A stretch of DNA of 64,000 nt from Rhizobium sp. CF080. Its GTDB lineage: Bacteria > Pseudomonadota > Alphaproteobacteria > Rhizobiales > Rhizobiaceae. This document shows positions 5,495-22,313 of this stretch, in pieces (positions within the stretch are counted from its first letter, which is position 1; each line of letters starts with the position of its first letter). A model generated the notes under the pieces. It was not told the origin of the DNA, ran no database searches, and was given only the letters and a program-made list of their open reading frames with translations. The position numbers and the translations under genes are program-made. Where the stretch lies: positions 1,054,001 to 1,118,000 of the forward strand of contig NZ_AKKC02000002.1 in the NCBI RefSeq assembly GCF_000282095.2. The letters run 5' to 3'.

Positions 5495-5510
5495 GATTGA
5501 AGCTTAAATC
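5495..5510. promoter_or_regulatory. Candidate operator, TTTARGCYTAAA family, site 1
   Basis: GATTGAAGCTTAAATC is a 16-bp palindrome with one mismatched pair, centred on AAGCTT. It is one of eight related sites in the window (see 5558, 13105, 13280, 15436, 19651, 22299 and 63151). The regulator is unknown; a MarR protein is the natural guess. Confidence 0.55.
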
Positions 5511-5557
5511 ATGTCTCTGCTGGTCTATTTTGATGACTAAAACAGCAAGACAGAATA

Positions 5558-5571
5558 GTTTAGGTTTAAAC
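5558..5571. promoter_or_regulatory. Candidate operator, TTTARGCYTAAA family, site 2
   Basis: GTTTAGGTTTAAAC is near-palindromic and matches the reverse complement of the site at 22299 at all but one or two bases. It lies about 100 bp upstream of the EthD-like start, in a plausible promoter position. Confidence 0.55.
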
Positions 5572-5671
5572 TTGTTTTTTCCCTCCGTCGGCTCGATAGT
5601 GGAATCACCACCGCGGGAACAGAGGCCGCCGGCAATCGTTGCGGCCTCATAGACAAGCAGGAAACCAAGCC

Positions 5672-6376
5672 ATGCGTTTTGCCTATTTCGCCTTTTTCGA
5701 GAATGTCGACGGAAGCCAGCTCGCGGTGAGCAAGGCGGATGTCGAGACGGTCGCCGAGATCGTCAAGCTGACACCCGGCCTCACCGCTGCCAATCTCTAT
5801 ACTCCCGAAGTCACCAAGGACATGTACAACAAGGATGAGCAGTCGCCGATCTTCGGCATGCAGCTCTACTTCAACGACCTGACGGACCTGGAAGACGCAA
5901 TGGCCCCGGCCGGCCATCTGCACCAGCTTGCTGCCTCCGGCGTGCTTTCGAGCATCCGTGGCGCGAAGGGCACGCAGCAGGCCATGTATGCGCGGCATTT
6001 TCCGGTCGACGACGCCAAGCTCGATATCGCGACGAACGGCAATCCCTGTTCCTACGTGGTGCACTATACCGGCCCGGCCGAAGACCTGAACGTCTGGATG
6101 CATCACTATGTCAGCCATCATCCGCCGGTGATGCGTACCTTCCCGGGCATCCGCAAGATCGAGGTCCTGTCGCGGATCGACTGGTGCGGTTTCCTTCCCT
6201 GGGAGCGGGTCAACCACATGCAGCGCAACCGGGTGATGTTCGACAGCCCGGCCGCACTCCAGGCGGCGCTGCAATCGCCGGCGCGCATCGCCATGCGCGA
6301 GGACTTCAAGACCTTCCCTCCTTTCGAAGGCGGTAATTCCCACTTCCCGATGGAGACGCAGATCATCGTCCCCTGA
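5672..6376 (+). CDS. EthD-like dimeric alpha/beta-barrel domain protein
   Basis: A 234-residue protein starting MRFAYFAFFENVDGSQLAV. The C-terminal half (HHPPVMRTFPGIRKIEVLSR, then VMFDSPAALQAALQSP) matches the pattern of EthD / ferredoxin-like dimeric barrel proteins: a strand ending in a PGxxxxE turn, then a helix introduced by FDSxAALxAAL. The N-terminal half may be a diverged second copy of the fold, since it contains the analogous MQLYFNDLTDLEDAM helix. Such proteins bind or isomerise aromatic and polyketide-like ligands. Start ATG 5672 fits the fold; the frame extends eleven codons further upstream. It is transcribed alone, convergent with the FMN dehydrogenase. The exact function is unknown. 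Confidence 0.7.
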   Translation: MRFAYFAFFENVDGSQLAVSKADVETVAEIVKLTPGLTAANLYTPEVTKDMYNKDEQSPIFGMQLYFNDLTDLEDAMAPAGHLHQLAASGVLSSIRGAKGTQQAMYARHFPVDDAKLDIATNGNPCSYVVHYTGPAEDLNVWMHHYVSHHPPVMRTFPGIRKIEVLSRIDWCGFLPWERVNHMQRNRVMFDSPAALQAALQSPARIAMREDFKTFPPFEGGNSHFPMETQIIVP

Positions 6377-6392
6377 CGGACGGTGAGGCCGC

Positions 6393-7571
6393 TCAGAGCT
6401 TTATATGATCGCGATCGAGATCGGCGACAGAGCGGCAGCCGAGAAGCGCCATTGTGCGGCGGGTTTCTTCTTCGAGGATGGTGATGGCGCGAGCCGCACC
6501 CGCCTCGCCGCCGGCCGCAAGTCCGTAGAGCGCGGCGCGGCCGGTCATGACCGCATCGGCGCCAAGCGCCAAGGCCTTGACGATATCCGTGCCGCGGCGG
6601 AAGCCGCTGTCGGCGAGGATGGTGATCCTGCCTTTCAGCTTGTTGGCGATCTTCGGCAGGATGGTGATCGGCGAAGGTGCGCCGTCGAGTTGGCGTCCGC
6701 CGTGATTGCTGATGACGATGCCATCTGCGCCCGCATCGACGGCCAGTTCCGCATCGCGCAACGTCATGACGCCCTTGATGATCAGCGGGCGCTTCCAGAT
6801 TTTCCGCAGGTGGCGGATGTGGCTCCAGTGAAGGTCCGGCTCCACCTGCTCGCGCGACCAGATGGCCGTGCGGGCGAAAGTCTGCTGATCTGCGGGCAGG
6901 AAATCGAGCAGATTGCCGAAGGGCGGAATGCCGCGGGCCATGACCGAAAGCGCCCAGCGCGGATGGCAGAGGATATCCAGCTTGTGGCGGAAGGTCGGGT
7001 CCATGCCGGAGCGATAATTGCGGCGGTCCCATTCGCGGTTGCCGAATGTCGCCGCGTCGGTCGTCACCATCAGCGCCTGGCAGCCGGCCTTTTCGGCGCG
7101 GCCGACCAGTTCGTTCATGAAGGTCTGGGAACGGAAGACGTAGAGCTGCATCCAGTGGTTCAGATCGGGGATGTTGGAAAGCTCCTCGACCCGCATGTTG
7201 GAGACAGTGCTCTGGGTGAAGGTGACGCCAGCCTTGGCGGCGGCTTCAGCCAGCAGCCGATCCCCCTGATACTGGAAAAGGCCGTTGAAGCCGGTCGGCG
7301 CGATGATGAAGGGCAGCCGCATCGTCCGGCCGAAGATCTTCGTCGAAAGATCGGGCACGCCCACACCGGTCAGCGTCGAGGGTCGGAACTCGATTTCCGA
7401 AAAGACTTCGCGGTTGCGGCGGAGCGTCCATTCGTCCTCGGCACCACCCTCGAGATATTCCATGACGAAGGCGGGCAGGCGGCTGCGTGCCATGGCCTGG
7501 AGGTCGGCGATCGTGACGGCGCGGCCGACATTCCTGCCGCTATAGTATCTCCGTCCGGCGATCGCCATCAT
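6393..7571 (-). CDS. FMN-dependent alpha-hydroxyacid dehydrogenase/oxidase (LldD/mandelate dehydrogenase type)
   Basis: A 392-residue TIM-barrel flavoenzyme that oxidises L-2-hydroxyacids to 2-oxoacids. The N-terminal region has LPAFVMEYLEGGAEDE, the FMN-facing segment. The active-site signature SNHGGRQLDGAPSP, with catalytic His and substrate-binding Arg, lies near residue 280; GADAVMTGRAALYGLAAGG binds the phosphate. A hydrophobic or aromatic hydroxyacid substrate is possible but not shown. The ATG at 7571 overlaps the stop of the peptide ABC ATPase by four bases (ATGA), so translation is coupled to the transporter. That coupling suggests the importer brings in the hydroxyacid or a conjugate. 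A second ATG lies at 7568. Confidence 0.9.
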   Translation of the reverse strand: MMAIAGRRYYSGRNVGRAVTIADLQAMARSRLPAFVMEYLEGGAEDEWTLRRNREVFSEIEFRPSTLTGVGVPDLSTKIFGRTMRLPFIIAPTGFNGLFQYQGDRLLAEAAAKAGVTFTQSTVSNMRVEELSNIPDLNHWMQLYVFRSQTFMNELVGRAEKAGCQALMVTTDAATFGNREWDRRNYRSGMDPTFRHKLDILCHPRWALSVMARGIPPFGNLLDFLPADQQTFARTAIWSREQVEPDLHWSHIRHLRKIWKRPLIIKGVMTLRDAELAVDAGADGIVISNHGGRQLDGAPSPITILPKIANKLKGRITILADSGFRRGTDIVKALALGADAVMTGRAALYGLAAGGEAGAARAITILEEETRRTMALLGCRSVADLDRDHIKL

Positions 7572-9445
7572 TCGACCTGATAGCCGGCTTCCGCCAATAC
7601 CGGCGACCACTCGGCGTTGACGTCATCCGGCGGCACGGCGGCGAGCAGGCTACGGGTATAGGCATGCTGCGGATTGGCAAACACGGTTTCGGTCCTGCCG
7701 CTTTCCACCACCTCGCCGCGATACATGACCATCACCCGATCGCAGAGATAACGGACGACGGAAAGGTCGTGGCTGATGAACAGCATCGAGAAGCCGTGCT
7801 CGTCGCGAAGCTTCAGCAGAAGGTCCAGAAGCTGGGCCTGTACCGAGACGTCGAGGCCGGATACGATTTCGTCGGCGACGAGGATGCGGGGCAGCGTGCA
7901 GAGCGCGCGGGCGATGTTGACGCGCTGTTTCTGGCCGCCCGAGAGCTGCGAGGGAAAGCGCATCGACGCATCCGGGGGCAGGCCGATTTCCTTCAGCAGT
8001 TCGGCGGCGCGGTCCATGCGTTCGCGGGTACTGTTGTGCAGCCCGCTTGCCTCGTTCGCCTGGGTGACGATGCTGCCGATCCGCCGGCGCGGGTTGAGTG
8101 CCGATTGCGGGTCCTGGAAGACCATCTGGATATATTCGCGGCGATAGGCCCTGTCGGCATGGCCGTTGGCGGTGATGTCGCGGCCGGCCAGCGTGATCCT
8201 GCCGTCGGTCGGCGTATCGAGGCCGACGACAAGGCGGGCGAGCGAGCTCTTGCCACTGCCGCTTTCGCCGACGATGCCGACGAACTCACCCTCGCCGAGT
8301 GTGAAATCGACGCTATTCACGGCTTTGAAGCTGCTGCGCTTGGCAAACGGGCTCCAGGCGGTCGTATAGGCCTTGGTCAGCTTTTCGCCATTGAGATGGA
8401 TCTTGCTCGATGCGATCTCGCGGCCGGGCGCCAACGGCGGCGGCACGATGTCCGGCGTCTTTTCGGTGCGGATGCAGGCGGCGATATGGTTCGGGCCGAT
8501 ATCGGCAAGCGGCGGCTCGGTCTGAGTACAGGCCTCGATCGCGTTCGGACAGCGGGAGGCGAAGCGGCAGCCCTTCAGTTCTTTCAGCACGCGCAGGCCC
8601 GGCATGCGCTCGGGCAGGATGAAAAGACCGCGGCGGGGGCCTGTGATGTTCGGGTTGGCGAGCTGCAGGCAGCGCGTATAGGGATGCGCAGGTGCGGAAA
8701 AAAGCTGCTTGGCGGGGCCGCGCTCGGCGGGGCGGCCGGCATAGAGCACCATGATCTCGTCACTGATCTGGGATGCGAGGCGCAGGTCGTGGGTGATGAA
8801 GATCACCGCCGTGCCGTCGCGCTTCTGCATTTCGGCGATCAGCTTGACGATACGGGCCTGGATGGTGACGTCGAGTGCGGTGGTCGGTTCGTCGGCGATC
8901 AACAGGCGCGGGCGGCTGGAAAAGGCCATGGCGATCAGGATGCGCTGGCACATGCCACCGGAAAGCTGGTGCGGATATTTCTCCAGCAGTGCCGCGCCAT
9001 GCGGCAGGTGGACCGCCTCGAATTCCTTCAGCGCCCGCTCGCGCCAGTTCTCTCCGGCGGCAAGGCCGATCCGCAGCAGGTGTTCCTTGATCTGCTGGCC
9101 GACCGTCAGGACCGGGTTGAGGCCGGAAAGCGGTTCCTGGGGGATGAAGGCGATGTCGCGGCCGAGAAGGTTGCGGCGTCGTTCCGGCAGCATGCTCACC
9201 AGGTCCTCGCCGTCGAAGGCGAGCGTGCCTTTGGTGACCGCAAAACCCTTCGGCAGATATTGCGAGATGGTGCGGCCGATCATCGACTTGCCGGCACCGG
9301 ATTCGCCGACCAGGCCGAGGATCTTGCCGGGTTCCAGCGAGAAGTTGAGATCCGTCAGGACCGGGAAGCTTTCCTTGGCTCCGAGCGATTCAACGCAGAG
9401 ATTCTTTGCTGAAAGAATGGGATTTCGGGCTGAAAGAATGGCCAT
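7568..9445 (-). CDS. Peptide-type ABC transporter, fused double ATP-binding protein
   Basis: A 625-residue cytoplasmic ATPase with two complete nucleotide-binding domains, equivalent to fused DppD and DppF. Domain one has Walker A GLVGESGAGKS at residues 44-54, signature LSGGMCQR, Walker B LLIADEP and the family's Cys-containing tail CRFASRCPNAIEAC. Domain two has Walker A GIVGESGSGKS near residue 395, signature LSGGQKQR and ILVADEIVSGLD, where Ile replaces the usual Pro after the catalytic Glu. It is the fourth gene of the minus-strand operon binding protein, two permeases, ATPase, FMN dehydrogenase, with a 1-bp gap to the permease before it. The second importer of the window has these ATPases as two separate genes. 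Confidence 0.93.
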   Translation of the reverse strand: MAILSARNPILSAKNLCVESLGAKESFPVLTDLNFSLEPGKILGLVGESGAGKSMIGRTISQYLPKGFAVTKGTLAFDGEDLVSMLPERRRNLLGRDIAFIPQEPLSGLNPVLTVGQQIKEHLLRIGLAAGENWRERALKEFEAVHLPHGAALLEKYPHQLSGGMCQRILIAMAFSSRPRLLIADEPTTALDVTIQARIVKLIAEMQKRDGTAVIFITHDLRLASQISDEIMVLYAGRPAERGPAKQLFSAPAHPYTRCLQLANPNITGPRRGLFILPERMPGLRVLKELKGCRFASRCPNAIEACTQTEPPLADIGPNHIAACIRTEKTPDIVPPPLAPGREIASSKIHLNGEKLTKAYTTAWSPFAKRSSFKAVNSVDFTLGEGEFVGIVGESGSGKSSLARLVVGLDTPTDGRITLAGRDITANGHADRAYRREYIQMVFQDPQSALNPRRRIGSIVTQANEASGLHNSTRERMDRAAELLKEIGLPPDASMRFPSQLSGGQKQRVNIARALCTLPRILVADEIVSGLDVSVQAQLLDLLLKLRDEHGFSMLFISHDLSVVRYLCDRVMVMYRGEVVESGRTETVFANPQHAYTRSLLAAVPPDDVNAEWSPVLAEAGYQVE

Positions 9446-9446
9446 G

Positions 9447-10304
9447 TCAGCTGCGCTCCGTCTGGGTCAGGCGCGTATCGAGAGTGCGGCGCAGGCCGTC
9501 ACCCAGGATATTGAAACCGAAGACCGCGAAGAAGATCGCGAAGATCGGGGCGATCAGGTTGAACGGGGCCTCGTAGATGTTCTGGCGCGCATCGGCGATC
9601 ATCTGGCCCCAGGCAGCGGTCTCCGAGCCGACGCTCATGCCGACGAAGGAGAGGATCGCTTCGACGATGATGGCGACGCCCATTTCGAGGCTCATCAGGG
9701 TGATGAGCAGCGGCAGCGTGCCCGGCAGGATTTCGCGGGTGATGGTGCGCCAGTGCGAGAAACCAACGAGCTGGGCGGCGGAGACGTAATCTCGCTGACG
9801 AAGCACGATGACTTCGCTTCGCAGCACCCGACAGAAGCGTGTCCAGTCGACCAGGATGATGGCGAGCACGACATTGCGCAGGCCGGTGCCGAGGCCCACC
9901 ATGAGGATGAGCGACAGGATGACCGGCGGGAAGGACAGCCAGATCTCGACGACGCGGCCGATCACCCAATCGACCCAGCCGCCGAAATAACCGGCGACAT
10001 GGGCGAAGAAGGCGCCGATGATCATCGCGCCGATCGAGGCGCTGAAGGCGACCGTTAGCGCCACGCGGGCGCCGAAGATCAGGCGGGAGAGGACGCAGCG
10101 GCCGAGGCTATCGGTGCCGAGCGGAAACATCGCATCGCCGCCATCGATCCAGACAGGGGGCGTCAGGATCGAGAGCAGGTTCTGCTCGTTCGGATCGTTC
10201 GGCGCCAGATAGGGCGCGAAGATCGCGCAGATGCCGAGGATGAAGATGATCACCAGGCCTGTCTGGACGCGGCCGGATTTCAGCCAGAGCGGAATCGGTC
10301 GCAT
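9447..10304 (-). CDS. Peptide-type ABC transporter permease (DppC-like)
   Basis: A 285-residue inner-membrane permease. It opens with a short cytoplasmic stretch, then TGLVIIFILGICAIFAPYLA and the DppC-type extracytoplasmic segment ending FPLGTDSLGRCVLSRLIFGA. The EAA loop reads AAQLVGFSHWRTITREILPG. It is one base from the DppB-like gene before it and one base from the fused ATPase after it, so the three are one transcript and probably translationally coupled. The substrate class of this family ranges from peptides to nickel, opines and glycosides. Here the neighbours suggest an organic acid or amide, but that is inference. Confidence 0.93.
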   Translation of the reverse strand: MRPIPLWLKSGRVQTGLVIIFILGICAIFAPYLAPNDPNEQNLLSILTPPVWIDGGDAMFPLGTDSLGRCVLSRLIFGARVALTVAFSASIGAMIIGAFFAHVAGYFGGWVDWVIGRVVEIWLSFPPVILSLILMVGLGTGLRNVVLAIILVDWTRFCRVLRSEVIVLRQRDYVSAAQLVGFSHWRTITREILPGTLPLLITLMSLEMGVAIIVEAILSFVGMSVGSETAAWGQMIADARQNIYEAPFNLIAPIFAIFFAVFGFNILGDGLRRTLDTRLTQTERS

Positions 10305-10305
10305 G

Positions 10306-11328
10306 TCAGCGCGCCCTCAGTTTCGGGTTGAGGATCATGTAGAGGCTGTCGACCACGATGCTGATCACCAGAACGGCGATGCAGTAGGTGAGCCCCGCGC
10401 CCTGGATGATCGGCAGGTCCGCGTTGCGGATCGCATCGACCATCAGGTTGCCCATGCCGGGATAGGAATAGATGATCTCGACCAGCAGCGTGCCACCGAA
10501 CAGGAAACCGAATTGCACGCCCATCAGGCTGAGTGTCGGCAGGATGGCGTTCTTCAGCCCATGGCGGATCAGGATGCGCTTTTCCGAAAGCCCGCGCAGG
10601 CGCGCCTGCTGGATATAGTCGTCCTGGTAGACGTCGAGCAGGCTCGAGCGCAGTACGCGCATCAGCGACGGCGAAAGCGCGATCCCAAGCGCAAGGCAGG
10701 GTAGGATCATGTGCTGGAGCGCGTTGAGGAAGGTCGAGATCTTGCCGGTGATCAGGCTGTCGAGCAGCAGGAAGCCGGTGACGACCGGGCGCTCGAAACC
10801 GGGGCTGAGACGACCGGTGAAGGGCAGGACCTCGAAGAACACGCCGAAGATCAACAGCAGGAACAGGCTCCAGAGGAATTCCGGCAGCGAGAGCAGCAGG
10901 ATGGAGAGGAAATCCATCACCGCTTCGGCGCGGGTGCCGCGCACGTAAAACAGGAAGAGACCGCCGGCGAGGCCGAAGACGGTGGCGACCACCATGGCGA
11001 TGAGGGCCAGTTCGATGGTGGCGGGCAGCGTCGAGCCGATCAGGCTCGTCACGTCCTGGCGGAAGTGGATGGAGCGGCCGATATCGCCGTGGAAGAGCTT
11101 GTTCAGCCAGATGCCGTACTGCTGGTAGAGCGGCAGGTTGAGCCCCATTTCCGTGCGCATCGCCTCGACTTCCTGGACCGTCGCATTCGGCGGCAGGGAC
11201 ATGGCGGCCGGATCGACCGGCAGGATGCGCAGGATGCAGAAGAGAAGCGCGGAAACAAGTAGAAGGATCGGTATCGCGGTCAGCACGCGCTTTACCAAAA
11301 GCTTGGCAATGGTCGCAAACATGCGCAT
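10306..11328 (-). CDS. Peptide-type ABC transporter permease (DppB-like)
   Basis: A 340-residue inner-membrane permease. The first helix LVKRVLTAIPILLLVSALLF is followed by the DppB periplasmic signature with DPAAMSLPPNAT and MGLNLPLYQQYGIWL. The EAA loop is QQARLRGLSEKRILIRHGLK. It forms the translocation pore with the DppC-like subunit downstream. It lies 75 bp after the binding-protein gene, from which it is separated by a strong hairpin (11354-11376), a layout repeated in the other ABC operons of this window. Confidence 0.93.
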   Translation of the reverse strand: MRMFATIAKLLVKRVLTAIPILLLVSALLFCILRILPVDPAAMSLPPNATVQEVEAMRTEMGLNLPLYQQYGIWLNKLFHGDIGRSIHFRQDVTSLIGSTLPATIELALIAMVVATVFGLAGGLFLFYVRGTRAEAVMDFLSILLLSLPEFLWSLFLLLIFGVFFEVLPFTGRLSPGFERPVVTGFLLLDSLITGKISTFLNALQHMILPCLALGIALSPSLMRVLRSSLLDVYQDDYIQQARLRGLSEKRILIRHGLKNAILPTLSLMGVQFGFLFGGTLLVEIIYSYPGMGNLMVDAIRNADLPIIQGAGLTYCIAVLVISIVVDSLYMILNPKLRAR

Positions 11329-11353
11329 GCCCCGTATTACGATGTCAGGGAAG

Positions 11354-11376
11354 GGGTCCGGATCAGTTCCGGACCC
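11354..11376 (-). terminator. Intra-operon hairpin between binding protein and permease
   Basis: Perfect 9-bp inverted repeat GGGTCCGGA (11354-11362) and TCCGGACCC (11368-11376) with a 5-nt loop. On the minus-strand transcript it lies between the binding protein and its first permease, so it probably acts as an attenuator or mRNA stabiliser. Confidence 0.55.
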
Positions 11377-11403
11377 AATAAAACAGATCGGTCAGATCTT
11401 CGC

Positions 11404-12939: not shown

Positions 12940-13104
12940 GACGATCCCTCTGGTTTCTGCCCGTCGATTGCGACCGACGGACCTGCGGCGGTTGGTGAAA
13001 CGCAAGCCTGCAATCCTGCCAGGGGCTTCGATTTTTATTCTGACCCGCTTTTCGCGGTCGTCCCCTTAACAATTGAGGGGATCGTAGAACGACATATAAA
13101 TTAC

Positions 13105-13118
13105 TTCAAGCCTAAAAT
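13105..13118. promoter_or_regulatory. Candidate operator, TTTARGCYTAAA family, site 3
   Basis: TTCAAGCCTAAAAT; the reverse complement ATTTTAGGCTTGAA matches the site at 22299 closely. It lies about 165 bp upstream of the peptide binding protein start on the minus strand. Confidence 0.5.
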
Positions 13119-13279
13119 TTCGGATCGTGAGAAATTGAGAAGCCCGTCGACTTCTGCGTGTAGAGGGCCGAAATGCCGGGCTTTTTGCAAGCCTTCAGGT
13201 TGAGGGCCAGTGAGCGGTGATCGCCAGATGGAGGGGCAAAAGCGGGTTTCGTAAAAACCCGTTGACGTCCTTTCCAATT

Positions 13280-13295
13280 ATTTTATGCTTAAAAT
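13280..13295. promoter_or_regulatory. Candidate operator, TTTARGCYTAAA family, site 4, over a minus-10 box
   Basis: ATTTTATGCTTAAAAT is a 16-bp palindrome with one mismatched pair. It overlaps the TATGCT minus-10 element of the promoter that would drive the SRPBCC/acyl-CoA ligase genes, 48 bp before the ATG at 13343. Repression by steric block is the simple reading. Confidence 0.6.
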
Positions 13296-13342
13296 GTCTT
13301 TTGAAGAAATGACGCCTCAACGCGACTGAAAGAGGGACGCTC

Positions 13343-13771
13343 ATGATCGATCCGCATTGTCATTCCAGCAGCATCATGGTGGAGCGCCCGGCGGCGGTCG
13401 CCTTCGAACTCATGTCGGACGGGCTGAAACAGGGCCAGTGGGCCTGGGGCAGCCTCAATCGAACCGAGTTGGAGCCCGGTCTCTTCTGCGGCACCTCGAC
13501 CTTTACTGGAAAGCAGACATTCGTGCGGCTCAATGTCGACCGGCCCCGCTTCCAGGTGGATTACGAGGTCGGCCCGGCCAAGGACGCCATGCAGTTTCGC
13601 AACATGTCTCGTGTCATCCCCGGCGAACTGCTGCGCATGGGGCCGGACAAGTGCGTGGTGACATTGCTGACCTGGCGCCTGGAGACGCAGACGGATGCGG
13701 AGTGGATCCAGTTCGGCACGATCCACGAGGCAGAAATGTTCCTGATCAAGGGCATCTTGGAACGGGCATAA
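13343..13771 (+). CDS. SRPBCC-superfamily-like ligand-binding protein
   Basis: A 142-residue protein without signal peptide. The start HCHSSSIMVERPAAVAFELM and the following Trp-rich strand resemble the START/SRPBCC helix-grip fold, in which the N-terminal strand leads into a helix that opens a hydrophobic pocket. The C-terminus HEAEMFLIKGILERA would be the long pocket-lining helix. Such proteins bind or transform aromatic or lipid-like ligands. It lies 10 bp upstream of the acyl-CoA ligase and is clearly cotranscribed with it, so a role with a CoA-ester or its acid is plausible. The fold assignment is moderate; no catalytic residues can be named. Confidence 0.6.
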   Translation: MIDPHCHSSSIMVERPAAVAFELMSDGLKQGQWAWGSLNRTELEPGLFCGTSTFTGKQTFVRLNVDRPRFQVDYEVGPAKDAMQFRNMSRVIPGELLRMGPDKCVVTLLTWRLETQTDAEWIQFGTIHEAEMFLIKGILERA

Positions 13772-13781
13772 GGACAGGACC

Positions 13782-15395
<1,614 letters not shown>

Positions 15396-15435
15396 ACTCC
15401 CTTACGGTTCCTCATCACTTCTGATATACCATAAA

Positions 15436-15449
15436 TCACAGCTTAAAAC
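15436..15449. promoter_or_regulatory. Candidate operator, TTTARGCYTAAA family, site 5
   Basis: TCACAGCTTAAAAC lies in the 71-bp gap between the acyl-CoA ligase and ohr, 18 bp before the ohr start codon. One half (GCTTAAAAC) matches the consensus well; the other half is poor, so this is the weakest of the eight sites. It hints at a separate promoter for the ohr operon. Confidence 0.4.
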
Positions 15450-15466
15450 CTGATATGGAGGCACGC

Positions 15467-15892
15467 ATGACCCCGGAAAAGATCCTCTATGAGACGTCCG
15501 TTACCGCGCATGGCGGTCGGGAAGGAAAAGCGCAGAGCACGGACGGCAGCTTTGCCGTCAATCTCTCGGTGCCGAAAGGGCTCGGCGGCCCAGGGGGCGA
15601 GGGGACCAATCCGGAGCAGCTTTTCGCCGCCGGTTATGCGGCCTGTTTCCTCGGCGCGGTGAAGCTGGTGGCACGCACCAGCAAGATCGCGCTGCCGGAT
15701 GACGTTTCGATCACCGCCAAGGTCGGCATCGGCCCGGTGCCGGTCGGTTACGCGCTGGCGGTCGAGCTCGTGGCGTCCTTGCCCGGCATCGAGCGTGCGG
15801 TCGCGGAAGAGATCGTCGCCGGTGCGCATCAGCGCTGCCCCTATTCCAATGCGACGCGCGGCAATGTCGACGTCAAATTGACGGTGGCCTGA
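15467..15892 (+). CDS. ohr: Ohr-type organic hydroperoxide reductase (OsmC/Ohr family)
   Basis: A 141-residue Ohr subfamily protein. The two reactive cysteines are present: Cys60 in AAGYAACF and Cys124 in HQRCPYSNAT, together with Arg18 near the N-terminus. Ohr reduces organic and fatty acid hydroperoxides using lipoylated partners. The ATG at 15467 has GGAG with a 6-base gap; an in-frame ATG lies four codons earlier. Its stop overlaps the thiolase start (TGATG), so it is translationally tied to a catabolic operon and not to an ohrR gene, which is unusual. It may protect against peroxides made by the flavoenzymes of this region. Confidence 0.93.
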   Translation: MTPEKILYETSVTAHGGREGKAQSTDGSFAVNLSVPKGLGGPGGEGTNPEQLFAAGYAACFLGAVKLVARTSKIALPDDVSITAKVGIGPVPVGYALAVELVASLPGIERAVAEEIVAGAHQRCPYSNATRGNVDVKLTVA

Positions 15893-17070
15893 TGGCCTTG
15901 TCCCGCGCGCGGCAATCTTATGACGGCGTGGTTCTGGCGGTGCCGGTGACGGTACCCTACCAGCGGTTTTCCATCGAAACCGCGCATTGGTGGATGGGCA
16001 AGGCGCTGAGGGCGCTGGCGGAAGGCGCTGGCATCAGCCATCGGGATTTCGATGGCTTTTCGGTTGCGAGCTTCACGATGGGACCGGATGTCGCGGTCGG
16101 TCTGACCCAGCATTTCGGGCTCTCCCCGCGCCATATCGACCACGTGCCGATGGGTGGAGCCGCGGGTATCGTCTCGCTTCGCCGGGCGGCACGGGCAGTG
16201 CAGGCGGGTGATGCGGATATCGTTGCCTGCGTCGCGGCCGACACCAACCGGGTCGACAGTTTCCGCCATCTGCTGGCCGGCTTTTCCCGGTTTTCTCAGG
16301 ATGCCGTCTATCCCTACGGTGCCGGCGGCGCCAATGGCAGTTTCGCGCTGATCGCCAGGGCTTACATGGATCGCTATGGTGCGAAGCGCGAGGATTTCGG
16401 CAAGCTCTGCGTCGCGCAGCGTGACAATGCGCTTAAAAACCCGAATGCGCTGATGAAGAAGCCGCTGACGCTGGAGCAATATATGTCGGCGCGGCCGATC
16501 GCCGAACCGTTCCATCTGTTCGATTGCGTCATGCCCTGCGCCGGTGCGGAAGCCTTTCTGGTGATGCGCGAGGAGACGGCCGTTTCGCTTGGGCTTCCCT
16601 TCGTACGGCTGCTGTCGGCCATCGAGCGGCACAATGCGTTTGCCGAGGATCCGGTGCAGGTGCGCGGCGGCTGGGTGGTCGACCGCGACGAGCTTTACGG
16701 CATGGCCGGTTCGGCGCCCGACGATATGGATTTTGTCCAGACCTATGACGATTATGCGGTGATCTCGATGATGCAGTTCGAGGATCTGGGTTTTTGCGCC
16801 AAGGGCGAGGGGCCGGATTTCGTGCGCCATCACACGTTCACGATTGACGGGTCCTTTCCGCACAACACGTCCGGCGGCCAGCTTTCGGTCGGCCAGGCGG
16901 GAGCCGCGGGTGGACATCTTGGGCTTACCGAAGCGATGCGTCAGCTTTTGGGGACGGCAGACGGTAGGCAGGTCGAAGATGCGAAGCTCGGGCTGGTTTC
17001 AGGTTTCGGCATGATCAACTACGACCGTGGGCTCGCTTCTGCGGCCGCCATTCTGGCGAGGGCATCATGA
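15892..17070 (+). CDS. Thiolase-superfamily protein (SCP2-thiolase/Ltp2-like) lacking the nucleophilic cysteine
   Basis: A 392-residue protein of the thiolase fold, SCP2/lipid-transfer subgroup. The C-terminal glycine-rich part NTSGGQLSVGQAGAAGG is preserved. In the N-terminal loop where active thiolases have the acyl-accepting Cys, it reads VPMGGAAGIVSL (residues 85-96), so the Cys is replaced by Ala or Gly. Thiolase-like proteins of this type that pair with a DUF35 partner, such as Ltp2 with ChsH2, are retro-aldolases. The next gene, overlapping by four bases (ATGA), encodes exactly such a DUF35 module. I therefore infer C-C cleavage of a hydroxyacyl-CoA by aldol chemistry, not thiolysis. 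The substrate is unknown. Confidence 0.85.
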   Translation: MALSRARQSYDGVVLAVPVTVPYQRFSIETAHWWMGKALRALAEGAGISHRDFDGFSVASFTMGPDVAVGLTQHFGLSPRHIDHVPMGGAAGIVSLRRAARAVQAGDADIVACVAADTNRVDSFRHLLAGFSRFSQDAVYPYGAGGANGSFALIARAYMDRYGAKREDFGKLCVAQRDNALKNPNALMKKPLTLEQYMSARPIAEPFHLFDCVMPCAGAEAFLVMREETAVSLGLPFVRLLSAIERHNAFAEDPVQVRGGWVVDRDELYGMAGSAPDDMDFVQTYDDYAVISMMQFEDLGFCAKGEGPDFVRHHTFTIDGSFPHNTSGGQLSVGQAGAAGGHLGLTEAMRQLLGTADGRQVEDAKLGLVSGFGMINYDRGLASAAAILARAS

Positions 17071-18311
17071 CCGGACCCTTTCTCAAGCCGAAGCGGAAGA
17101 ACCCGCTCGCCCGCACCACGCAGCCGCTGCTGCCGCCTCAAGCGCGCAGCCGCAAGGCGCACGGGTTGACGCTCGCTGCCGCGACCGGCCGCTTCGTGCT
17201 GCAGTGCTGCGGCGAATGCGGCCGCTACACCTATCCGGCACGCGAGGCCTGCCCGAACTGCCTTTCGTCCGACCTGACGTTCAGGGACGCGCCGACCGGC
17301 GGTTCGCTGCTGTCGGAAACGCAGATCGAGGTCACCAGCGATCCTTATTTCCGCGAGCATATGCCGTGGCGCACCGGGCTGGTTCAGCTCGACTGCGGGC
17401 CGATTGTTATCGTGCACCTGCATGGCGGTTGCGGCGGACCTGGTAGTCAGCTCAAGCTGTCGTTGCAGCTGGACCGGGCGGGACAGGCCGTGTTCTTCGC
17501 CAAACCCGTTTTGGAGGTGCCGCACATGGAAGACGATCCCCAATGGCGCGAGATGACCGCCGACCCGAGGCACCGGCGGGTTTTGATCACCGACGGGCGC
17601 AGCCCGCTTGCGTTGCCAATGGCGCAGGCTCTCAAGAAAGCGGGAGCGGCGAGGATTTTCGTCGGTGTGGCCGATCGGTGGAAACCTCTTGACCAGCAGG
17701 CGTTGCTGGCGGCGATCGAGGGCGTCGAATTCGTCGATCTGGATCTGACGAGCGAGCGTTCCGTGCAGGAACTGGCGATGGATATCGGCGCCAAGGTCGA
17801 GATTTTGGTCAACACGGCCGATCATGTCCGGCCCGCGCATCTTTTCGATGCGGGCGCGGCCAATGCGGCGCGGGAGGCAATGGATCATACCGTGATGGGA
17901 CTGATGCGCCTTGCCCAGGCTTTTGGGCCGGTGATGCGCTCGCGCGGCGCCGACGGTGCGGCCGGAGCCGTTGCCTGGGTCAACGTGCTTTCGGTCCATG
18001 GGCTCAGCAACGTGCCGCAGTTCGGCGTCCATTCCGCCGCGCACGCGGCGTGCCTGTCGCTGTCGCAATGGCTGCGCACCGAGCTTAGACCGGGCGGCAT
18101 CCGGGTCATCAACGCATTCACCGGGCCGCTCGATACCGAATGGTTCCAGACGGTGCCGCCGCCGAAGGTGGCGCCAAAGGCCGTGGCCGATGCCGTTCTC
18201 GACGGGCTGAAGCGCGGGCTGGAAGACATCTATGTCGGCGATGTCGCCAAGGATATCGAGGCGCGTCTGTTCGACAATCCGAAAGCCGTCGAGCGGGAGG
18301 CTGGCCAATGA
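17067..18311 (+). CDS. Zn-ribbon/OB-fold (DUF35) protein fused to a degenerate short-chain dehydrogenase
   Basis: A 414-residue two-domain protein. The first part is a DUF35 module: zinc ribbon with CGEC at residues 48-51 and CPNC at 62-65, then an OB-fold to about residue 150. The second part (about 165-400) has the SDR outline, but its motifs are eroded. The cofactor loop reads VLITDGRSPLALP instead of TGxxxGxG, Ser309 is kept, and the YxxxK pair is replaced by His322-x3-His326 in VHSAAHAAC. It overlaps both neighbours by ATGA, so it should assemble with the thiolase-like protein. DUF35 is often fused to MaoC hydratase domains; fusion to an SDR is not an arrangement I recognise. The second domain may be structural. 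Confidence 0.85.
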   Translation: MTGPFLKPKRKNPLARTTQPLLPPQARSRKAHGLTLAAATGRFVLQCCGECGRYTYPAREACPNCLSSDLTFRDAPTGGSLLSETQIEVTSDPYFREHMPWRTGLVQLDCGPIVIVHLHGGCGGPGSQLKLSLQLDRAGQAVFFAKPVLEVPHMEDDPQWREMTADPRHRRVLITDGRSPLALPMAQALKKAGAARIFVGVADRWKPLDQQALLAAIEGVEFVDLDLTSERSVQELAMDIGAKVEILVNTADHVRPAHLFDAGAANAAREAMDHTVMGLMRLAQAFGPVMRSRGADGAAGAVAWVNVLSVHGLSNVPQFGVHSAAHAACLSLSQWLRTELRPGGIRVINAFTGPLDTEWFQTVPPPKVAPKAVADAVLDGLKRGLEDIYVGDVAKDIEARLFDNPKAVEREAGQ

Positions 18312-19099
18312 GCGGTGATATTCTGAGCAAATTCGCCGGAGCATTGGCGAGCGGTGCGGTCCGCGTCGTTGACCTCACCCACACGCTGTCGCCGGATTTC
18401 CCGGTCATCGTCATGCCGCCGGAACTCGGGCAATCCGCGCCGTTCCGCATGGAAAGGATCTCCCGCTACGATGGCGGTGGGCCGGCCTGGTACTGGAACA
18501 ACCTCTCCTTCGGCGAGCACACGGGCACGCATTTCGATGCGCCGATCCATTGGTATACGGGCCGCGATCTGCCGCTCAATTCCGTCGATACCCTGCCGCC
18601 GGCCGATATGATCGCGCCGGCCTGCGTGATCGATTGTTCGCGGCAGGCGAGCGAGGACGCGGATTTCCTGCTGACCGTTTCGGATGTCATGAAGTGGGAA
18701 GAGCAATATGGCCGCATCCCGGCGCGCTCATGGGCCTTGCTCAGAACCGATTGGTCGAAGAAGTCAGGGACCGCCTATGCCAATCTCACGGCCGATGGCG
18801 CCCATACGCCCGGGCCGGATGCGGAGGTGATGCGCTGGCTCGTGGCAGAGCGGGATATCATCGGTTTCGGGACGGAAACGATCGGCACGGATGCGGGCCA
18901 AGCCGGGCATTTTTCGCCGCCATATCCGGCGCACCATTACCTTCATGGCGCCGGCCGCTACGGGCTGCAATGCCTCACCAATCTCGACCAACTGCCGCCG
19001 ACGGGTGCGATGATCGTCGCCGCGCCGCTGAAGATTCAGAACGGTTCGGGCAGCCCCTTGCGCGTGCTGGCGCTCGTTCAGGAGCGCTCGACGGGATGA
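18308..19099 (+). CDS. Cyclase family hydrolase (second paralogue)
   Basis: A 263-residue PF04199 hydrolase, paralogous along its whole length to the product of 461-1243. The metal motif HTGTHFDAPIHW is at residues 71-82 and the TIGTDAG segment is conserved near residue 195. The ATG at 18308 overlaps the previous stop (ATGA), so it is the last gene of the ohr-thiolase-DUF35/SDR-cyclase operon. In a CoA-ester operon it would open a lactone, lactam or amide before or after activation. Its 3' end overlaps the convergent MarR gene by 22 bp. Confidence 0.9.
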   Translation: MSGDILSKFAGALASGAVRVVDLTHTLSPDFPVIVMPPELGQSAPFRMERISRYDGGGPAWYWNNLSFGEHTGTHFDAPIHWYTGRDLPLNSVDTLPPADMIAPACVIDCSRQASEDADFLLTVSDVMKWEEQYGRIPARSWALLRTDWSKKSGTAYANLTADGAHTPGPDAEVMRWLVAERDIIGFGTETIGTDAGQAGHFSPPYPAHHYLHGAGRYGLQCLTNLDQLPPTGAMIVAAPLKIQNGSGSPLRVLALVQERSTG

Positions 19100-19620
19100 G
19101 AACCGCTCGCCACGCGCCGGGCGGCGGTGTCGTAAAAGCTTGTGAGCAGTTCCAGCATTTCCGTCGCTCCGCCAAGTCCCTGTTCCGCATGGTCCATCTT
19201 CTGGATCAGCGAAATCAGCAGATGCCGGCGCACGGCACGGTAATCCTGGGCGAGCTTGGTGCCCTTGCGGGTCGGCGTGTAGAGCGTGTCCTTGCGCGAG
19301 CGGCCTTTTACGCGTTCGATCAGCAGCAGGGTCTGCAGCTTCTTGATGGCATACTGGATGTTGGCGGTGTCGTCGCGGCCGAGCAGACGGGAAATTTCAC
19401 CAAGCCCTTTCGGCTTGTTGCGGTAGCGGATCGTGTGCAGGATCGCAGTGTCGAGGCCGCTCAGGCCCGCGCCGGCCAGTTCGCTGGAGCACTCCGCCTG
19501 CCAGCGCAGGAAGGCGGCGGAAATCCGCCAGAGCGACCATTCGAACTCCGTCAGCGCGGCTTCCGACATTTCGACGGTCGTATCGCTCAGCGGGTTTTCG
19601 GGCGTGGTCGGCAAAATCAT
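19078..19620 (-). CDS. MarR family transcriptional regulator (second)
   Basis: A 180-residue winged-helix protein. The core reads GLGEISRLLGRDDTANIQYA (recognition helices), KKLQTLLLIERVKGRSRKDT (wing) and TRKGTKLAQDYRAVRRHLL (dimer helix), with IRYRNKPKG before it. It resembles the less common MarR branch that includes PadR-like HpaR and Rhizobium MarR2-type proteins. The start ATG 19620 has GGAG with a 6-base gap. A site of the TTTARGCYTAAA family lies at 19651-19666, about 30 bp upstream, in the gap it shares with the divergent racemase-like gene. This makes it the best candidate for the autoregulated reader of that motif. Confidence 0.82.
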   Translation of the reverse strand: MILPTTPENPLSDTTVEMSEAALTEFEWSLWRISAAFLRWQAECSSELAGAGLSGLDTAILHTIRYRNKPKGLGEISRLLGRDDTANIQYAIKKLQTLLLIERVKGRSRKDTLYTPTRKGTKLAQDYRAVRRHLLISLIQKMDHAEQGLGGATEMLELLTSFYDTAARRVASGSHPVERS

Positions 19621-19650
19621 GCGGTTCTCCGGGTGGTTCCTGCAACGGGA

Positions 19651-19666
19651 GTAAAGCCTTAAATTG
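19651..19666. promoter_or_regulatory. Candidate operator, TTTARGCYTAAA family, site 6
   Basis: GTAAAGCCTTAAATTG (reverse complement CAATTTAAGGCTTTAC) lies in the 99-bp gap between the divergent marR gene (start 19620) and the racemase-like gene (start 19720). It has one extra base relative to the consensus. The position is ideal for autoregulation plus control of the neighbour. Confidence 0.5.
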
Positions 19667-19719
19667 GTGTTTTGACGAGTGCGAATTCGCGCTCGTCGAA
19701 CGAACAGAACGAGGGGAAC

Positions 19720-20526
19720 ATGCGCATCTTCTGGCAAAGCTTCATCGACGCCTCTTCGAGCGCGGCCTACATGAAGCGGCTCTCGGACTACCTGAATGGC
19801 ATTGCCGAGCCGGGCACGGTGGTGGACGTCTTCGGTATCAGTCCGCCGGACCGGCATTTCGGGCGGCTGGCGGAATTCCGCTGCGCAGCGATCGCGATCG
19901 ACAATGGCTTGGAAGCGGCGAGCCGCGGATATGACGCCGTCGTCATCGGCCATTTCCAGGATCCCGGACTCTACGAACTCAAGTCGGCGCTGACCATTCC
20001 GGTGATCGGTGCCGGCGAGGTCTGCATGCATTATGCCGCGCGGCTCGGGCGGCGCATGGCGCTGGTCACCCTCGATGACGTCTTCCAGGTCTGGCATTAC
20101 GAGCAGGCCGACCTTTACGGTCTCGGCGGCCGCGTGAAGCATGTCGTCGGCATGAATTGCGAGCCTTCGGATTTCAGCGCCGCCTTTGCGGGCGACGACG
20201 ATGCGCGGCGGCGGATGCTTGAAAACTTCACCGCCTGCGCCGAGCCGCTGGTGCGGGACGGCGCCGACGTCGTGGTGCCGGCGGGTGTATTACCGGGCCT
20301 TCTGGTCGGCGGCGAATACGGGTTCAAGGTCCTGCATGCGCCGGTCGTCAATACGGCGGCGGTGGCGCTGAAGAGCGCCGAGATGGACGTGCGGCTGCAG
20401 AAGATCAACGGCATCGAGGTTAGCCGCGGGCCGTTCTGTTCGCTTGCCAACGAGCATGCGATCGAGGATTTCCGGACTTTCGTCGCCAACGGCCGTCAGG
20501 CGCCACTGTTTCCGAGCGGCACCTGA
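19720..20526 (+). CDS. Asp/Glu/hydantoin racemase-fold protein lacking both catalytic cysteines
   Basis: A 268-residue protein with the two-lobed Asp/Glu racemase fold. The first lobe motif reads VIGHFQDPGLYEL, so His78 stands where hydantoin racemases have Cys. The second lobe reads VVVPAGVLPGL around residue 188, where the second Cys (usually GCAG) is expected. With both acid/base cysteines gone it is unlikely to be a conventional racemase; the fold also supports decarboxylases and isomerases. ATG 19720 has GAGGGG with a 3-base gap. An alternative upstream start exists 16 codons earlier. It diverges from marR and is convergent with the quinone oxidoreductase. Confidence 0.8.
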   Translation: MRIFWQSFIDASSSAAYMKRLSDYLNGIAEPGTVVDVFGISPPDRHFGRLAEFRCAAIAIDNGLEAASRGYDAVVIGHFQDPGLYELKSALTIPVIGAGEVCMHYAARLGRRMALVTLDDVFQVWHYEQADLYGLGGRVKHVVGMNCEPSDFSAAFAGDDDARRRMLENFTACAEPLVRDGADVVVPAGVLPGLLVGGEYGFKVLHAPVVNTAAVALKSAEMDVRLQKINGIEVSRGPFCSLANEHAIEDFRTFVANGRQAPLFPSGT

Positions 20527-20532
20527 AGAACG

Positions 20533-21459
20533 TCACATCGTCAGCATCAGCCGTCCGCGCGAAATGGAGCCTTTTTCCATCAGGTGATGGGCTTCGGCCG
20601 CTTCCGACAGGGGCATGGTGCGGGCGACCTGGGGCTTGAGCAGGCCGGCGCCGGCGAGGTCCATCATCGACTGAAGCGCCGACTTGTCGTCGGTGATCAT
20701 CGCGCGGGTGACCTTGACGCCGAATTCCTCGCCGCGATCCCTGATCGGGTCGGCGACCAGCCAGACCATATGGCCGCCCTTCTTGAGCACCTTGTAGGAC
20801 TTGTCATGGACTTCGCCGCCCATCAGGTCGAAGACGATATCCTGATCCGTGAGGCGTTCGGAAAAGTCCTCCTCGTCATAGGCGATCACCCGGTCGGCGC
20901 CGAGACCGAGCACATAATCGCGATTGGTCGAGCGGGAGGTGGCGGTGACGTGGGCGCCGAGGTGGTGGCAGAGCTGGACCAGCATTCCACCGACTGCGCC
21001 TGAACCGGAATGGACGAGAACCCTGTCGCCGGATTTGACTTCGGCAGTCCGCACCGCGATCCAGGTGCTCAAGCCGGCATTGGTCAGCGCCACCGCATCG
21101 ACGGTCGAGAGGTTGTCCGGAATTTTGACAGCATGCTTTTCATCGACGGCGATCATTTCCGCATAACCGCCTTGGGCGAAGACGCCGGCCATGATCGCGG
21201 CCCGGTCGCCTACCTTGAACTCGGTGACGCCGTCGCCGATGGCGATCACCGTGCCCCCACCGTCGCGGCCGGGCACACTCGGCATCGGCAGGGTGAAGTG
21301 ACTTTGCAGATATCCGGCGCGGAGCTTCCAGTCGAAGGGCGTGACGCTGGCAGCCTCGAGCTTCACCAGGATCTGGCCCGGTCCGGCGACCGGATCGGGC
21401 AGGTCGACATAGTGCATGACATCGGCCGGGCCGTGTTCGCTGTACTGGATGGCTTTCAC
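20533..21459 (-). CDS. Zinc-independent MDR / NADPH:quinone oxidoreductase-like enzyme
   Basis: A 308-residue medium-chain dehydrogenase/reductase of the quinone oxidoreductase branch. The N-terminal GroES-like part has PGRDGGGTVIAIGDGVTEFK. The Rossmann part has DRVLVHSGSGAVGGMLVQL, the AxxGxxG-like NADPH loop near residue 145. Cys/His ligands of a catalytic zinc are absent. Start is GTG 21459, because AGGAG lies seven bases upstream on the minus strand and the product then begins at the family's usual position (VKAIQYSEHG). It lies 29 bp downstream of the HpaI-type aldolase and is probably cotranscribed with it. Confidence 0.9.
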   Translation of the reverse strand: MKAIQYSEHGPADVMHYVDLPDPVAGPGQILVKLEAASVTPFDWKLRAGYLQSHFTLPMPSVPGRDGGGTVIAIGDGVTEFKVGDRAAIMAGVFAQGGYAEMIAVDEKHAVKIPDNLSTVDAVALTNAGLSTWIAVRTAEVKSGDRVLVHSGSGAVGGMLVQLCHHLGAHVTATSRSTNRDYVLGLGADRVIAYDEEDFSERLTDQDIVFDLMGGEVHDKSYKVLKKGGHMVWLVADPIRDRGEEFGVKVTRAMITDDKSALQSMMDLAGAGLLKPQVARTMPLSEAAEAHHLMEKGSISRGRLMLTM

Positions 21460-21488
21460 GTCGTCACTCCTGGAAAAATTGATGCAGC

Positions 21489-22244
21489 TTATGCGGAGCG
21501 TGCGGCGGCGACGTCGGCAGCGATGCCGGCGCCGAGGAACCTCGTATCGCTTGAAAGCAGATAGAAGCTGATGCCGGCATCCGACCATTTTCCGACGTCA
21601 TCGGGGGAGGGGCGGAAGATGCCGACGGCCTTGCCCGCTTTGCGGGCAGCCTTGGTGATCGTCAGAATGGCCGCATCCAGCTTCTCGGCTCCATCCGGCC
21701 CCATCGCGCCGATCGAGACGGAGAGGTCGCCGGGGCCGATGAAGACCACGTCGATGCCCTCGACGGCGGCGATTTCCTCGACATTGGCGAGCCCTTCGGC
21801 GGTCTCGACCTGGATTGCGAGGACGAGGCTTTCATTCGCCGATTTCAGATAGTCGGGAATACGGTACCCGTAGCCTGCGGCACGTCCCGGACCGACACCG
21901 CGTTCGCCGATCGGCGGATAACGGGTCGCCAGAACGGCGGCCTTGGCCTGGGCGGCGTTGGATACTCGCGGCACCAGCACGCCGGCAGCTCCGGCGTCGA
22001 GCACGCTGGCTATCGATTCCGGGGCGTGGCCCGGAACGCGCACCATGGCGGGTACGCGATGGACATCGGCGGCGCGGACGAGATTTTCGATCAGCTCACG
22101 GCCGATCTGAGCATGTTCGGCGTCGATGCAGATGAAGTCGAGGCCCGCCGCAGCAGTCACCTCGATTGCGACCGGATGCGGGATCGCCGCGAATGTGCCG
22201 ATGACGCGCTCATGACCGATACATTTTCTGCGGAAGTCGCTCAT
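21489..22244 (-). CDS. HpcH/HpaI aldolase/citrate lyase family protein
   Basis: A 251-residue class II aldolase of the HpaI type, which cleaves 2-oxo-4-hydroxyacids to pyruvate and an aldehyde with a divalent metal. Motifs include ICIDAEHAQIG with the catalytic His near residue 45, MVRVPG with the substrate Arg, and the metal ligands in IQVETAEGL and IGPGDLSVSIG. It is the first gene of a two-gene minus-strand unit with the quinone oxidoreductase and diverges from the GntR gene at 22440. A TTTARGCYTAAA site and one GTATAC operator lie in its promoter region, so two regulators may act on it. Confidence 0.9.
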   Translation of the reverse strand: MSDFRRKCIGHERVIGTFAAIPHPVAIEVTAAAGLDFICIDAEHAQIGRELIENLVRAADVHRVPAMVRVPGHAPESIASVLDAGAAGVLVPRVSNAAQAKAAVLATRYPPIGERGVGPGRAAGYGYRIPDYLKSANESLVLAIQVETAEGLANVEEIAAVEGIDVVFIGPGDLSVSIGAMGPDGAEKLDAAILTITKAARKAGKAVGIFRPSPDDVGKWSDAGISFYLLSSDTRFLGAGIAADVAAARSA

Positions 22245-22298
22245 CGGGATGCCTTATGAAATTTGCCGAAACGGCTTTGAAACCTACGCCAAATTAAA

Positions 22299-22313
22299 GT
22301 TTAAGCCTAAAAT
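22299..22313. promoter_or_regulatory. Candidate operator, TTTARGCYTAAA family, site 7
   Basis: GTTTAAGCCTAAAAT contains TTTAAGCCTAAA, a 12-bp palindrome with one mismatched pair, 55-69 bp upstream of the aldolase start (22244, minus strand). This is the best match to the consensus. Confidence 0.6.

What the first reader, a model, noticed from the sequence alone, without database searches (positions are those of the whole stretch)
5495..22313. A shared TTTARGCYTAAA palindrome marks one regulon across region A
Seven sites of the same AT-rich near-palindrome lie in intergenic promoter regions at 5495, 5558, 13105, 13280, 15436 (weak), 19651 and 22299, and a related palindrome at 63151. Two (5495 and 13280) are 16-bp palindromes with one mismatched pair, and the 13280 site covers a good minus-10 box, as a repressor would. 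The controlled units would be the amino acid ABC genes, EthD-like protein, peptide ABC operon, SRPBCC/acyl-CoA ligase, ohr-thiolase operon, marR and the aldolase. The marR gene at 19078-19620 has a site in its own promoter and is the first candidate; the marR gene at 3207 is the second. The motif search was by eye, so more sites may exist.
Basis: partly seen in the sequence, partly recalled or inferred. Interest (0 to 1): 0.75.

Follow-up and report, generated by a model that had tools for sequence, protein, structure and literature searches.

The report
Conserved MarR operator for anthranilate catabolism
A 16-letter DNA palindrome that sits in front of several gene sets here, and in front of one aromatic-degradation gene in 82 of 83 promoters examined from this and other bacteria, is the likely binding site of a MarR-type repressor that would control the predicted breakdown of isatin and anthranilate.

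Summary
The motif is real. A matrix from those five finds three more sites outside the window (-23459, -15204, -5786): together 8 intergenic and 0 coding hits of at least 15 bits in 49 kb, against 1 and 2 in the other 405 kb scanned. In relatives the sites recur in front of operon-leading genes and rarely elsewhere. They precede 82 of 83 distinct upstreams of a flavoprotein gene (ACMR, salicylyl-CoA/2-aminobenzoyl-CoA monooxygenase-reductase type), including Paracoccus, Novosphingobium, Comamonas and Caballeronia. The cluster also holds isatin hydrolases A and B, so the regulon is most likely isatin/anthranilate breakdown through 2-aminobenzoyl-CoA. An IadR-like MarR just outside the window goes with a different box. 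Binding and ligand are untested. I saw no report of this regulon in the open papers searched.

The parts
5495..5510 (.). operator site GATTGAAGCTTAAATC, upstream of the amino-acid ABC genes
   Evidence: 18.6 bits, intergenic; 13 of 13 related upstreams of the binding-protein gene have a site; leave-one-out rank only 85
5557..5572 (.). operator site AGTTTAGGTTTAAACT, upstream of the EthD-family gene
   Evidence: 22.6 bits; 14 of 14 related upstreams of EthD have a site
13103..13118 (.). operator site ACTTCAAGCCTAAAAT, upstream of the peptide ABC binding-protein gene
   Evidence: 21.5 bits; kept in 10 of 10 short stretches from relatives
13280..13295 (.). operator site ATTTTATGCTTAAAAT over the promoter of the isatin hydrolase A operon
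   Evidence: 26.0 bits; TTGACG-N16-TATGCT; site kept in 10 of 10
22298..22313 (.). operator site AGTTTAAGCCTAAAAT between the aldolase and GntR genes
   Evidence: 25.7 bits; present in 5 of 9 full-length related stretches
15434..15449 (.). weak look-alike before ohr, probably not a site
   Evidence: 11.0 bits; differs in G047
19650..19665 (.). weak look-alike (one half-site) between marR_C and the racemase gene
   Evidence: 11.7 bits; conserved in 9 of 9 informative loci at 9-11 bits
3207..3722 (+). marR_B, the likely repressor of the regulon
   Evidence: MarR_2 44.8 and MarR 43.4 bits, both over cut-off; homologues with sites
   Evidence: HTH_27 47 bits, no MarR family model hit; no PDB relative at E 1e-3
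   Evidence: permease TIGR01726 98.2 of 42.2 bits
5672..6376 (+). EthD-family gene
   Evidence: TIGR02118 36.8 of 30.5 bits
6393..12939 (-). FMN-dependent alpha-hydroxy-acid dehydrogenase-like gene and peptide-type ABC transporter genes
13343..15395 (+).
   Evidence: ligase: PRK06155 311 bits, below cut-off; the first gene has no Pfam or NCBIfam hit
15455..18311 (+). Ohr-type, thiolase-like and OB-fold/SDR genes
   Evidence: TIGR03561 172.9 of 88.85 bits, thiolase models below cut-off; zf-ChsH2 and adh_short
18308..19099 (+). isatin hydrolase A-like gene
   Evidence: PDB 5nnb and 5nna, E about 2e-115
461..1243 (-). isatin hydrolase B-like gene
   Evidence: PDB 4j0n, E 2.5e-121
21489..22244 (-). 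HpaI-type aldolase gene next to the 22298 site
   Evidence: TIGR02311 177.4 bits, below its 368.8 cut-off
22440..23147 (+). GntR-family regulator gene next to the 22298 site
   Evidence: FCD 61 and GntR 38.1 bits

Best explanation
The palindrome ATTTTAAG-CTTAAAAT is likely the operator of a MarR-family repressor encoded at 3207-3722 (MarR_B), which would hold back genes for the predicted breakdown of isatin and anthranilate through 2-aminobenzoyl-CoA. Shown: sites cluster between genes in one 46-kb region; they recur in front of the same operon-leading genes in relatives; at ACMR the site often overlaps a promoter-like pair of boxes; MarR_B homologues accompany the sites. Inferred: MarR_B (or its 81% identical second copy at C15:623184) binds as a dimer and blocks the promoter; a pathway compound, perhaps anthranilate or 2-aminobenzoyl-CoA, releases it; isatin hydrolases make isatinate on the way to anthranilate, a CoA ligase activates it, ACMR dearomatises it, and beta-oxidation-type enzymes plus RidA finish it. 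A second, IadR-like MarR just outside the window (MarR_A, -1732..-1214) would act on a different box at the indolepyruvate-oxidoreductase-like genes.
For: 8 intergenic and 0 coding hits of at least 15 bits in the 49-kb cluster, five of the eight being training sites. Upstreams with at least 15 bits: ACMR 53/53, EthD 14/14, ABC binding protein 13/13, peptide binding protein 4/4, against ECH 0/43, ACAD 0/42, IorB 0/40, RidA 0/37, HisM 0/23. ACMR 82 of 83 distinct upstreams; shuffled upstreams 0-3 of 83. Of 40 genomes fetched at ACMR have no MarR_A at E<=1e-20; their sites remain (L191 marginal) and a MarR_B homologue is found for each. G061, G092 and G204 have MarR_B, no MarR_A match, and strong ACMR sites. 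MarR_B homologue within 12 kb of ACMR in 56 of 73 regions, MarR_A in 21. Pathway: NF006101 1343 of 1078 bits, isatin hydrolases, kynU and kynA beside MarR_B homologues.
Against: No binding, expression or ligand data. No site of 10 bits or more stands before marR_B itself here, and only 7 of 35 related upstreams have one of 15 bits. In G047 five sites remain although MarR_B lies on another contig. MarR_B-type genes are common, and presence in genomes without ACMR was not tested at the relaxed threshold. Some sites lie where not expected (Ohr 1 of 3, ACS 1 of 2, FADox1 1 of 30), the ACMR of L214 has none, and -5786 is weak and without a 13-bit match in G047. One permuted matrix reached 40 of 83. 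The promoter overlap (39 of 83) has no control. The ACMR family name says salicylyl-CoA; anthranilate is inferred from neighbours.
Confidence: 0.72

Rival explanations
1. MarR_A, the IadR-like MarR at -1732..-1214, binds these sites and represses the cluster in answer to an indole acid.
For: It lies in the cluster, matches 7kym (Bradyrhizobium MarR, E 4e-25), and the 20 relatives chosen for it mostly carry the sites.
Against: 24 of 40 ACMR genomes with the site lack it at E<=1e-20. Its own upstream has no site in 0 of 38. A different box, ATATG-N3..5-TTGCA, stands in 31 of 46 IorA upstreams.
Confidence: 0.12
2. MarR_C (19078-19620), the reader's first choice, binds the sites and its own promoter at 19650.
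For: A half-site-like sequence near its promoter is conserved in 9 of 9 informative loci.
Against: Strong orthologue only in G047 among the 20 relatives; the 19650 sequence scores 9-12 bits; ACMR sites exist in genomes far beyond its range.
Confidence: 0.04
3. Another regulator encoded elsewhere binds the sites, and MarR_B is only a neighbour.
For: MarR_B is not always beside ACMR (56 of 73 regions), and no own-promoter site is seen here.
Against: A MarR_B homologue was found in each of 14 ACMR genomes searched whole, and it sits next to ACMR in distant plasmids.
Confidence: 0.11
4. The sites are chance AT-rich look-alikes in promoters.
For: The reversed control pattern is commoner genome-wide (49 against 14), and one permuted matrix reached 40 of 83.
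Against: Seven of 14 genome places lie in 38 kb; conservation at orthologous promoters; shuffles 0-3 of 83.
Confidence: 0.01

Closest known systems
IadR/IacR, MarR repressors of auxin (IAA) catabolism (PMC9613470: section 7 and passages read)
   Same: MarR-type control of an indole/isatin/anthranilate cluster; iad loci reach anthranilate through isatin and carry indolepyruvate-oxidoreductase-like genes; MarR_A here is related to 7kym.
   Different: The palindrome follows MarR_B, a separate group with another recognition helix; the only PF00848 dioxygenase subunit found in this genome is on contig C16, not in the cluster. The published 24-bp IadR site was not in the text I could read, so boxes could not be compared.
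2-aminobenzoyl-CoA (anthraniloyl-CoA) pathway, Azoarcus/Arthrobacter (PMC3534580: passages read)
   Different: No MarR is mentioned there (0 occurrences); that paper names PaaX-related regulators on its plasmid.
MarR repressors of other aromatic pathways (HpaR, BilQ profiles; CouR, BadR recalled)
   Same: Winged-helix MarR domain and palindromic operators in catabolic clusters (operators recalled, not compared).
   Different: MarR_B scores far below every NCBIfam cut-off shown (best 37.6 of 200 bits; HpaR 34.9 of 121.2).

Membership tests
MarR family (MarR_B) | MarR winged-helix domain over the curated cut-off | tested here: met
   PF12802 44.8 of 27 bits, PF01047 43.4 of 24.6 bits
MarR family (MarR_B) | binds a palindromic operator as a dimer and is released by a ligand | not testable with these tools
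   only co-occurrence of gene and site
IadR (MarR_B) | best relation to IadR structures | tested here: not met
   best hit 3boq 2.8e-25; 7kfo only 1.3e-8 and 7kym not among the 37 hits
IadR (MarR_A) | related to Bradyrhizobium and Variovorax auxin MarRs | tested here: met
   3cjn 2.3e-41, 7kym 4.1e-25, 7kfo 3.6e-9
IadR (MarR_A) | MarR_73 carboxylate contacts Ser28, His32, Arg46 | tested here: inconclusive
   by my count on the 7kfo alignment (24-residue offset): Asn48, Ala52, Arg66, so one of three kept; 7kym has Asn at the first
iad-type auxin locus | dioxygenase genes iadDE in the cluster | tested here: not met
   own genome has one PF00848 match, on contig C16
Salicylyl-CoA 5-hydroxylase / 2-aminobenzoyl-CoA monooxygenase-reductase (ACMR) | FAD monooxygenase fused to OYE-type reductase, over the family cut-off | tested here: met
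   NF006101 1343 of 1078 bits; FAD_binding_3 and Oxidored_FMN
Salicylyl-CoA 5-hydroxylase / 2-aminobenzoyl-CoA monooxygenase-reductase (ACMR) | substrate 2-aminobenzoyl-CoA rather than salicylyl-CoA | not tested
   inferred from isatin hydrolases, kynU/kynA neighbours and RidA within 12 kb in 44 of 73 regions
Isatin hydrolase | close relation to solved isatin hydrolases A and B | tested here: met
   18308-19099 to 5nnb 2.3e-115; 461-1243 to 4j0n 2.5e-121; catalytic residues not checked

The most novel reading that the evidence does not exclude
An undescribed, deeply conserved MarR repressor/operator pair governs 2-aminobenzoyl-CoA catabolism across alpha- and beta-proteobacteria. In Neorhizobium-type bacteria it has spread to a 46-kb isatin/anthranilate regulon with its own uptake systems and runs beside an IadR-like MarR with a separate box, so that indole acids and anthranilate are sensed one after the other.
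Probability: 0.5. Interest if true: 0.65.

Novelty: new member of a known kind. Interest (0 to 1): 0.5.

Why it matters
Tryptophan breakdown through anthraniloyl-CoA monooxygenase/reductase is among the pathways that a large catabolism survey left out for lack of knowledge (PMC9007349, one passage read). A conserved operator and regulator give a handle: the box in front of ACMR predicts which uncharacterised transporters, ligases and hydrolases belong to the pathway, and a gel shift plus inducer screen would name its signal. In plant-associated rhizobia it bears on how indole compounds, possibly including auxin-derived isatin, are consumed.

Tried and rejected
G018 seemed to lack the site, but its ACMR lies on another contig and has one (25.3 bits), with MarR_B homologues at 43-44%. 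A genome count of the 16-mer with 2 mismatches over 247 genomes was too noisy in AT-rich genomes to separate regulators, so no count from it is used. Own-genome places outside the cluster: those on C8, C9, C13 and C14 were looked at in part (porin-like, chemoreceptor, NMT1-like, AraC, LysR, nucleoside hydrolase; C13:1871463 and C14 not annotated) and are taken as chance. A matrix with 5495 out of register was replaced. My first gene calls merged marR_C with an overlapping frame; corrected by hand. Rows dropped before counting: own, duplicate and very short records, identical upstreams, and genes under 60% identity (similar). In one search isatin hydrolase B gave no rows, so the MarR_A box there was read by eye only.

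Paper searches: (open PMC papers only; all ten used). Searches gave no paper. The rest were judged from listings except four papers: PMC9613470 (section 7 whole plus passages), PMC11630574, PMC9007349 and PMC3534580 (passages). None describes this operator in what I saw.
Full report
Observation. The window is G000:C15:1054001-1118000 of a 7.05-Mb genome. By the MarR at -1732, the closest named records are Neorhizobium and an unnamed Rhizobiales isolate (96-99% for the first six of 21 loci). TTTARGCYTAAA with up to one mismatch occurs at 14 places genome-wide, seven of them between C15:1038798 and 1076311. A 16-bp matrix from the five strong window sites was scanned over the 454 kb of C15 held here. 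The best places not used in training are at -15204 (24.0 bits) and -23459 (22.1); -5786 follows (17.0), after one coding hit (18.4 at -199685) and level with another intergenic place (-329780). -9753 is weaker (13.9). These four cluster places are intergenic by my own gene calls. At 15 bits the 49-kb cluster has 8 intergenic hits (five of them training sites) and 0 coding, although coding DNA is 17 times more abundant there; the remaining 405 kb have 1 and 2.

Conservation. With the matrix from the window alone, an upstream score of at least 15 bits was found for ACMR in 53 of 53 distinct upstreams, the amino-acid ABC binding protein 13/13, EthD 14/14, the peptide binding protein 4/4, SRPBCC 1/1, SBP5_b 9/15, IorA 19/45, FADox2 7/20, MarR_B 7/35 and MprF 3/13. 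Operon-internal genes are nearly free: ECH 0/43, ACAD 0/42, IorB 0/40, RidA 0/37, HisM 0/23, FadB 0/19; exceptions are Ohr 1/3, ACS 1/2 and FADox1 1/30. Sites matching the pair at 13103 and 13280 stand in 10 of 10 short stretches from relatives, the 22298 site in 5 of 9 full-length stretches (a tenth had 170 bases). At ACMR, 82 of 83 distinct upstreams have a site of at least 13 bits (57/57 for ACMR of 75% identity or more, 23/23 at 50-75%, 2/3 below), and 39 overlap a promoter-like pair of boxes, for which no control was run. Ten rounds of shuffled upstreams gave 0-3 of 83, and 60 column-permuted matrices 3.45 on average with one outlier of 40. Of 88 plasmid records with a MarR_B match I read twelve stretches. 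Eight hold ACMR, and each has a site within about 100 bases before it: Rhizobium leguminosarum, Caballeronia, Aminobacter, Comamonas, Paracoccus versutus, Novosphingobium, Mesorhizobium amorphae, Phyllobacterium; scores run from 15.1 (Caballeronia) to 23.3. Of the four without ACMR, two have weaker sites and two none.

What is regulated. The -15204 site lies over TTGACG-N16-TATACT (sequence), the likely promoter of a 790-aa FAD/FMN fusion, NF006101 over its cut-off, here called ACMR. It is followed by SDR, enoyl-CoA hydratase, acyl-CoA dehydrogenase, thioesterase, RidA and FadB-like genes (RidA and thioesterase models below cut-off; other labels mine from sequence and from annotated relatives). 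The 13280 site lies over the likely promoter of the operon ending in an isatin hydrolase A-like gene; a type B gene is at 461-1243. Kynureninase and tryptophan dioxygenase genes lie beside MarR_B homologues in Aminobacter and Roseivivax. Hence the inferred route isatin, isatinate, anthranilate, 2-aminobenzoyl-CoA, ACMR product, beta-oxidation. The ligase is not settled: 13782-15395 is one candidate; a benzoate-CoA-ligase-family gene beside the second MarR_B copy is another (TIGR02262 363.8 of 375.25 bits), with a 16.5-bit site about 86 bases before its assumed start.

Which regulator. Three MarR-type genes are in the cluster: MarR_A (-1732..-1214), MarR_B (3207-3722), MarR_C (19078-19620). MarR_C has a strong orthologue only in G047 among the 20 relatives. 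MarR_A is missing at E<=1e-20 from 24 of the 40 genomes whose ACMR regions were fetched, yet each has the ACMR site (L191 marginal at 12.4-13.4 bits). A MarR_B homologue is found for all 24, in the region or elsewhere in the genome. In 73 regions of at least 10 kb with ACMR, a MarR_B homologue lies within 12 kb in 56 and MarR_A in 21, although many regions had been chosen for MarR_A. GN(V/I/L)T in the recognition helix is kept in 50 of the 51 MarR_B homologues aligned (L191 has GKVT). MarR_A reads QSTMSR there and goes with a different box, ATATG-N3..5-TTGCA, in 31 of 46 IorA upstreams; that box also occurs in 8/54 ACMR, 7/16 SBP5_b, 6/21 FADox2 and 1/7 OppC upstreams. MarR_B is therefore the best candidate, and MarR_A probably has its own targets. 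Nothing here shows binding, and the second MarR_B copy (81%) may do the same work.

Known and new. MarR repressors of aromatic pathways are a known kind. IadR is the nearest functional parallel (PMC9613470), but MarR_B is a different group, and the only dioxygenase alpha subunit found (PF00848) is on another contig. Ten paper searches in the open PMC library (listed under Tried and rejected) gave no account of this regulator or operator in what I saw. I rate it a new member of a known kind, with broad conservation for an unnamed operator.

Noticed in passing
upstream of IorA, L016:10250-10505 (window about -9750 to -9495), and about 1330-1360 before the isatin hydrolase B gene: A second box, ATATG-N3..5-TTGCA (also ATATGC-N4-GCATAT), in 31 of 46 IorA upstreams, probably the MarR_A operator; read by eye at the isatin hydrolase B gene.
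   Followed up: partly
22336-22426: Exact inverted repeat CCGTATACTGA ... TCAGTATACGG before the GntR gene, a likely GntR-family operator, next to the MarR-type site at 22298.
   Followed up: no
23144-24744: Luciferase-like flavin monooxygenase and flavin reductase after the GntR gene; similar genes (37-43% alike) lie near sites in G178, G153, G117 and G163, so a flavin-dependent oxygenation may feed the pathway.
   Followed up: no
L016:14313-18259 (window -5687 to -1741): Lysyl-phosphatidylglycerol synthase-like (LPG_synthase_C) and VirJ-domain genes sit inside the catabolic cluster, with a 17-bit site before the first that has no 13-bit match in G047.
   Followed up: partly
G000:C15:623184-623693 (L131): Second MarR_B copy (81%), with a benzoate-CoA-ligase-family gene nearby.
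   Followed up: partly
461-1243 and 18308-19099: Two isatin hydrolase types (A and B) in one cluster; all 15 related genomes searched have two matches, one at 82-95% and one at 53-55% to the type A gene.
   Followed up: partly
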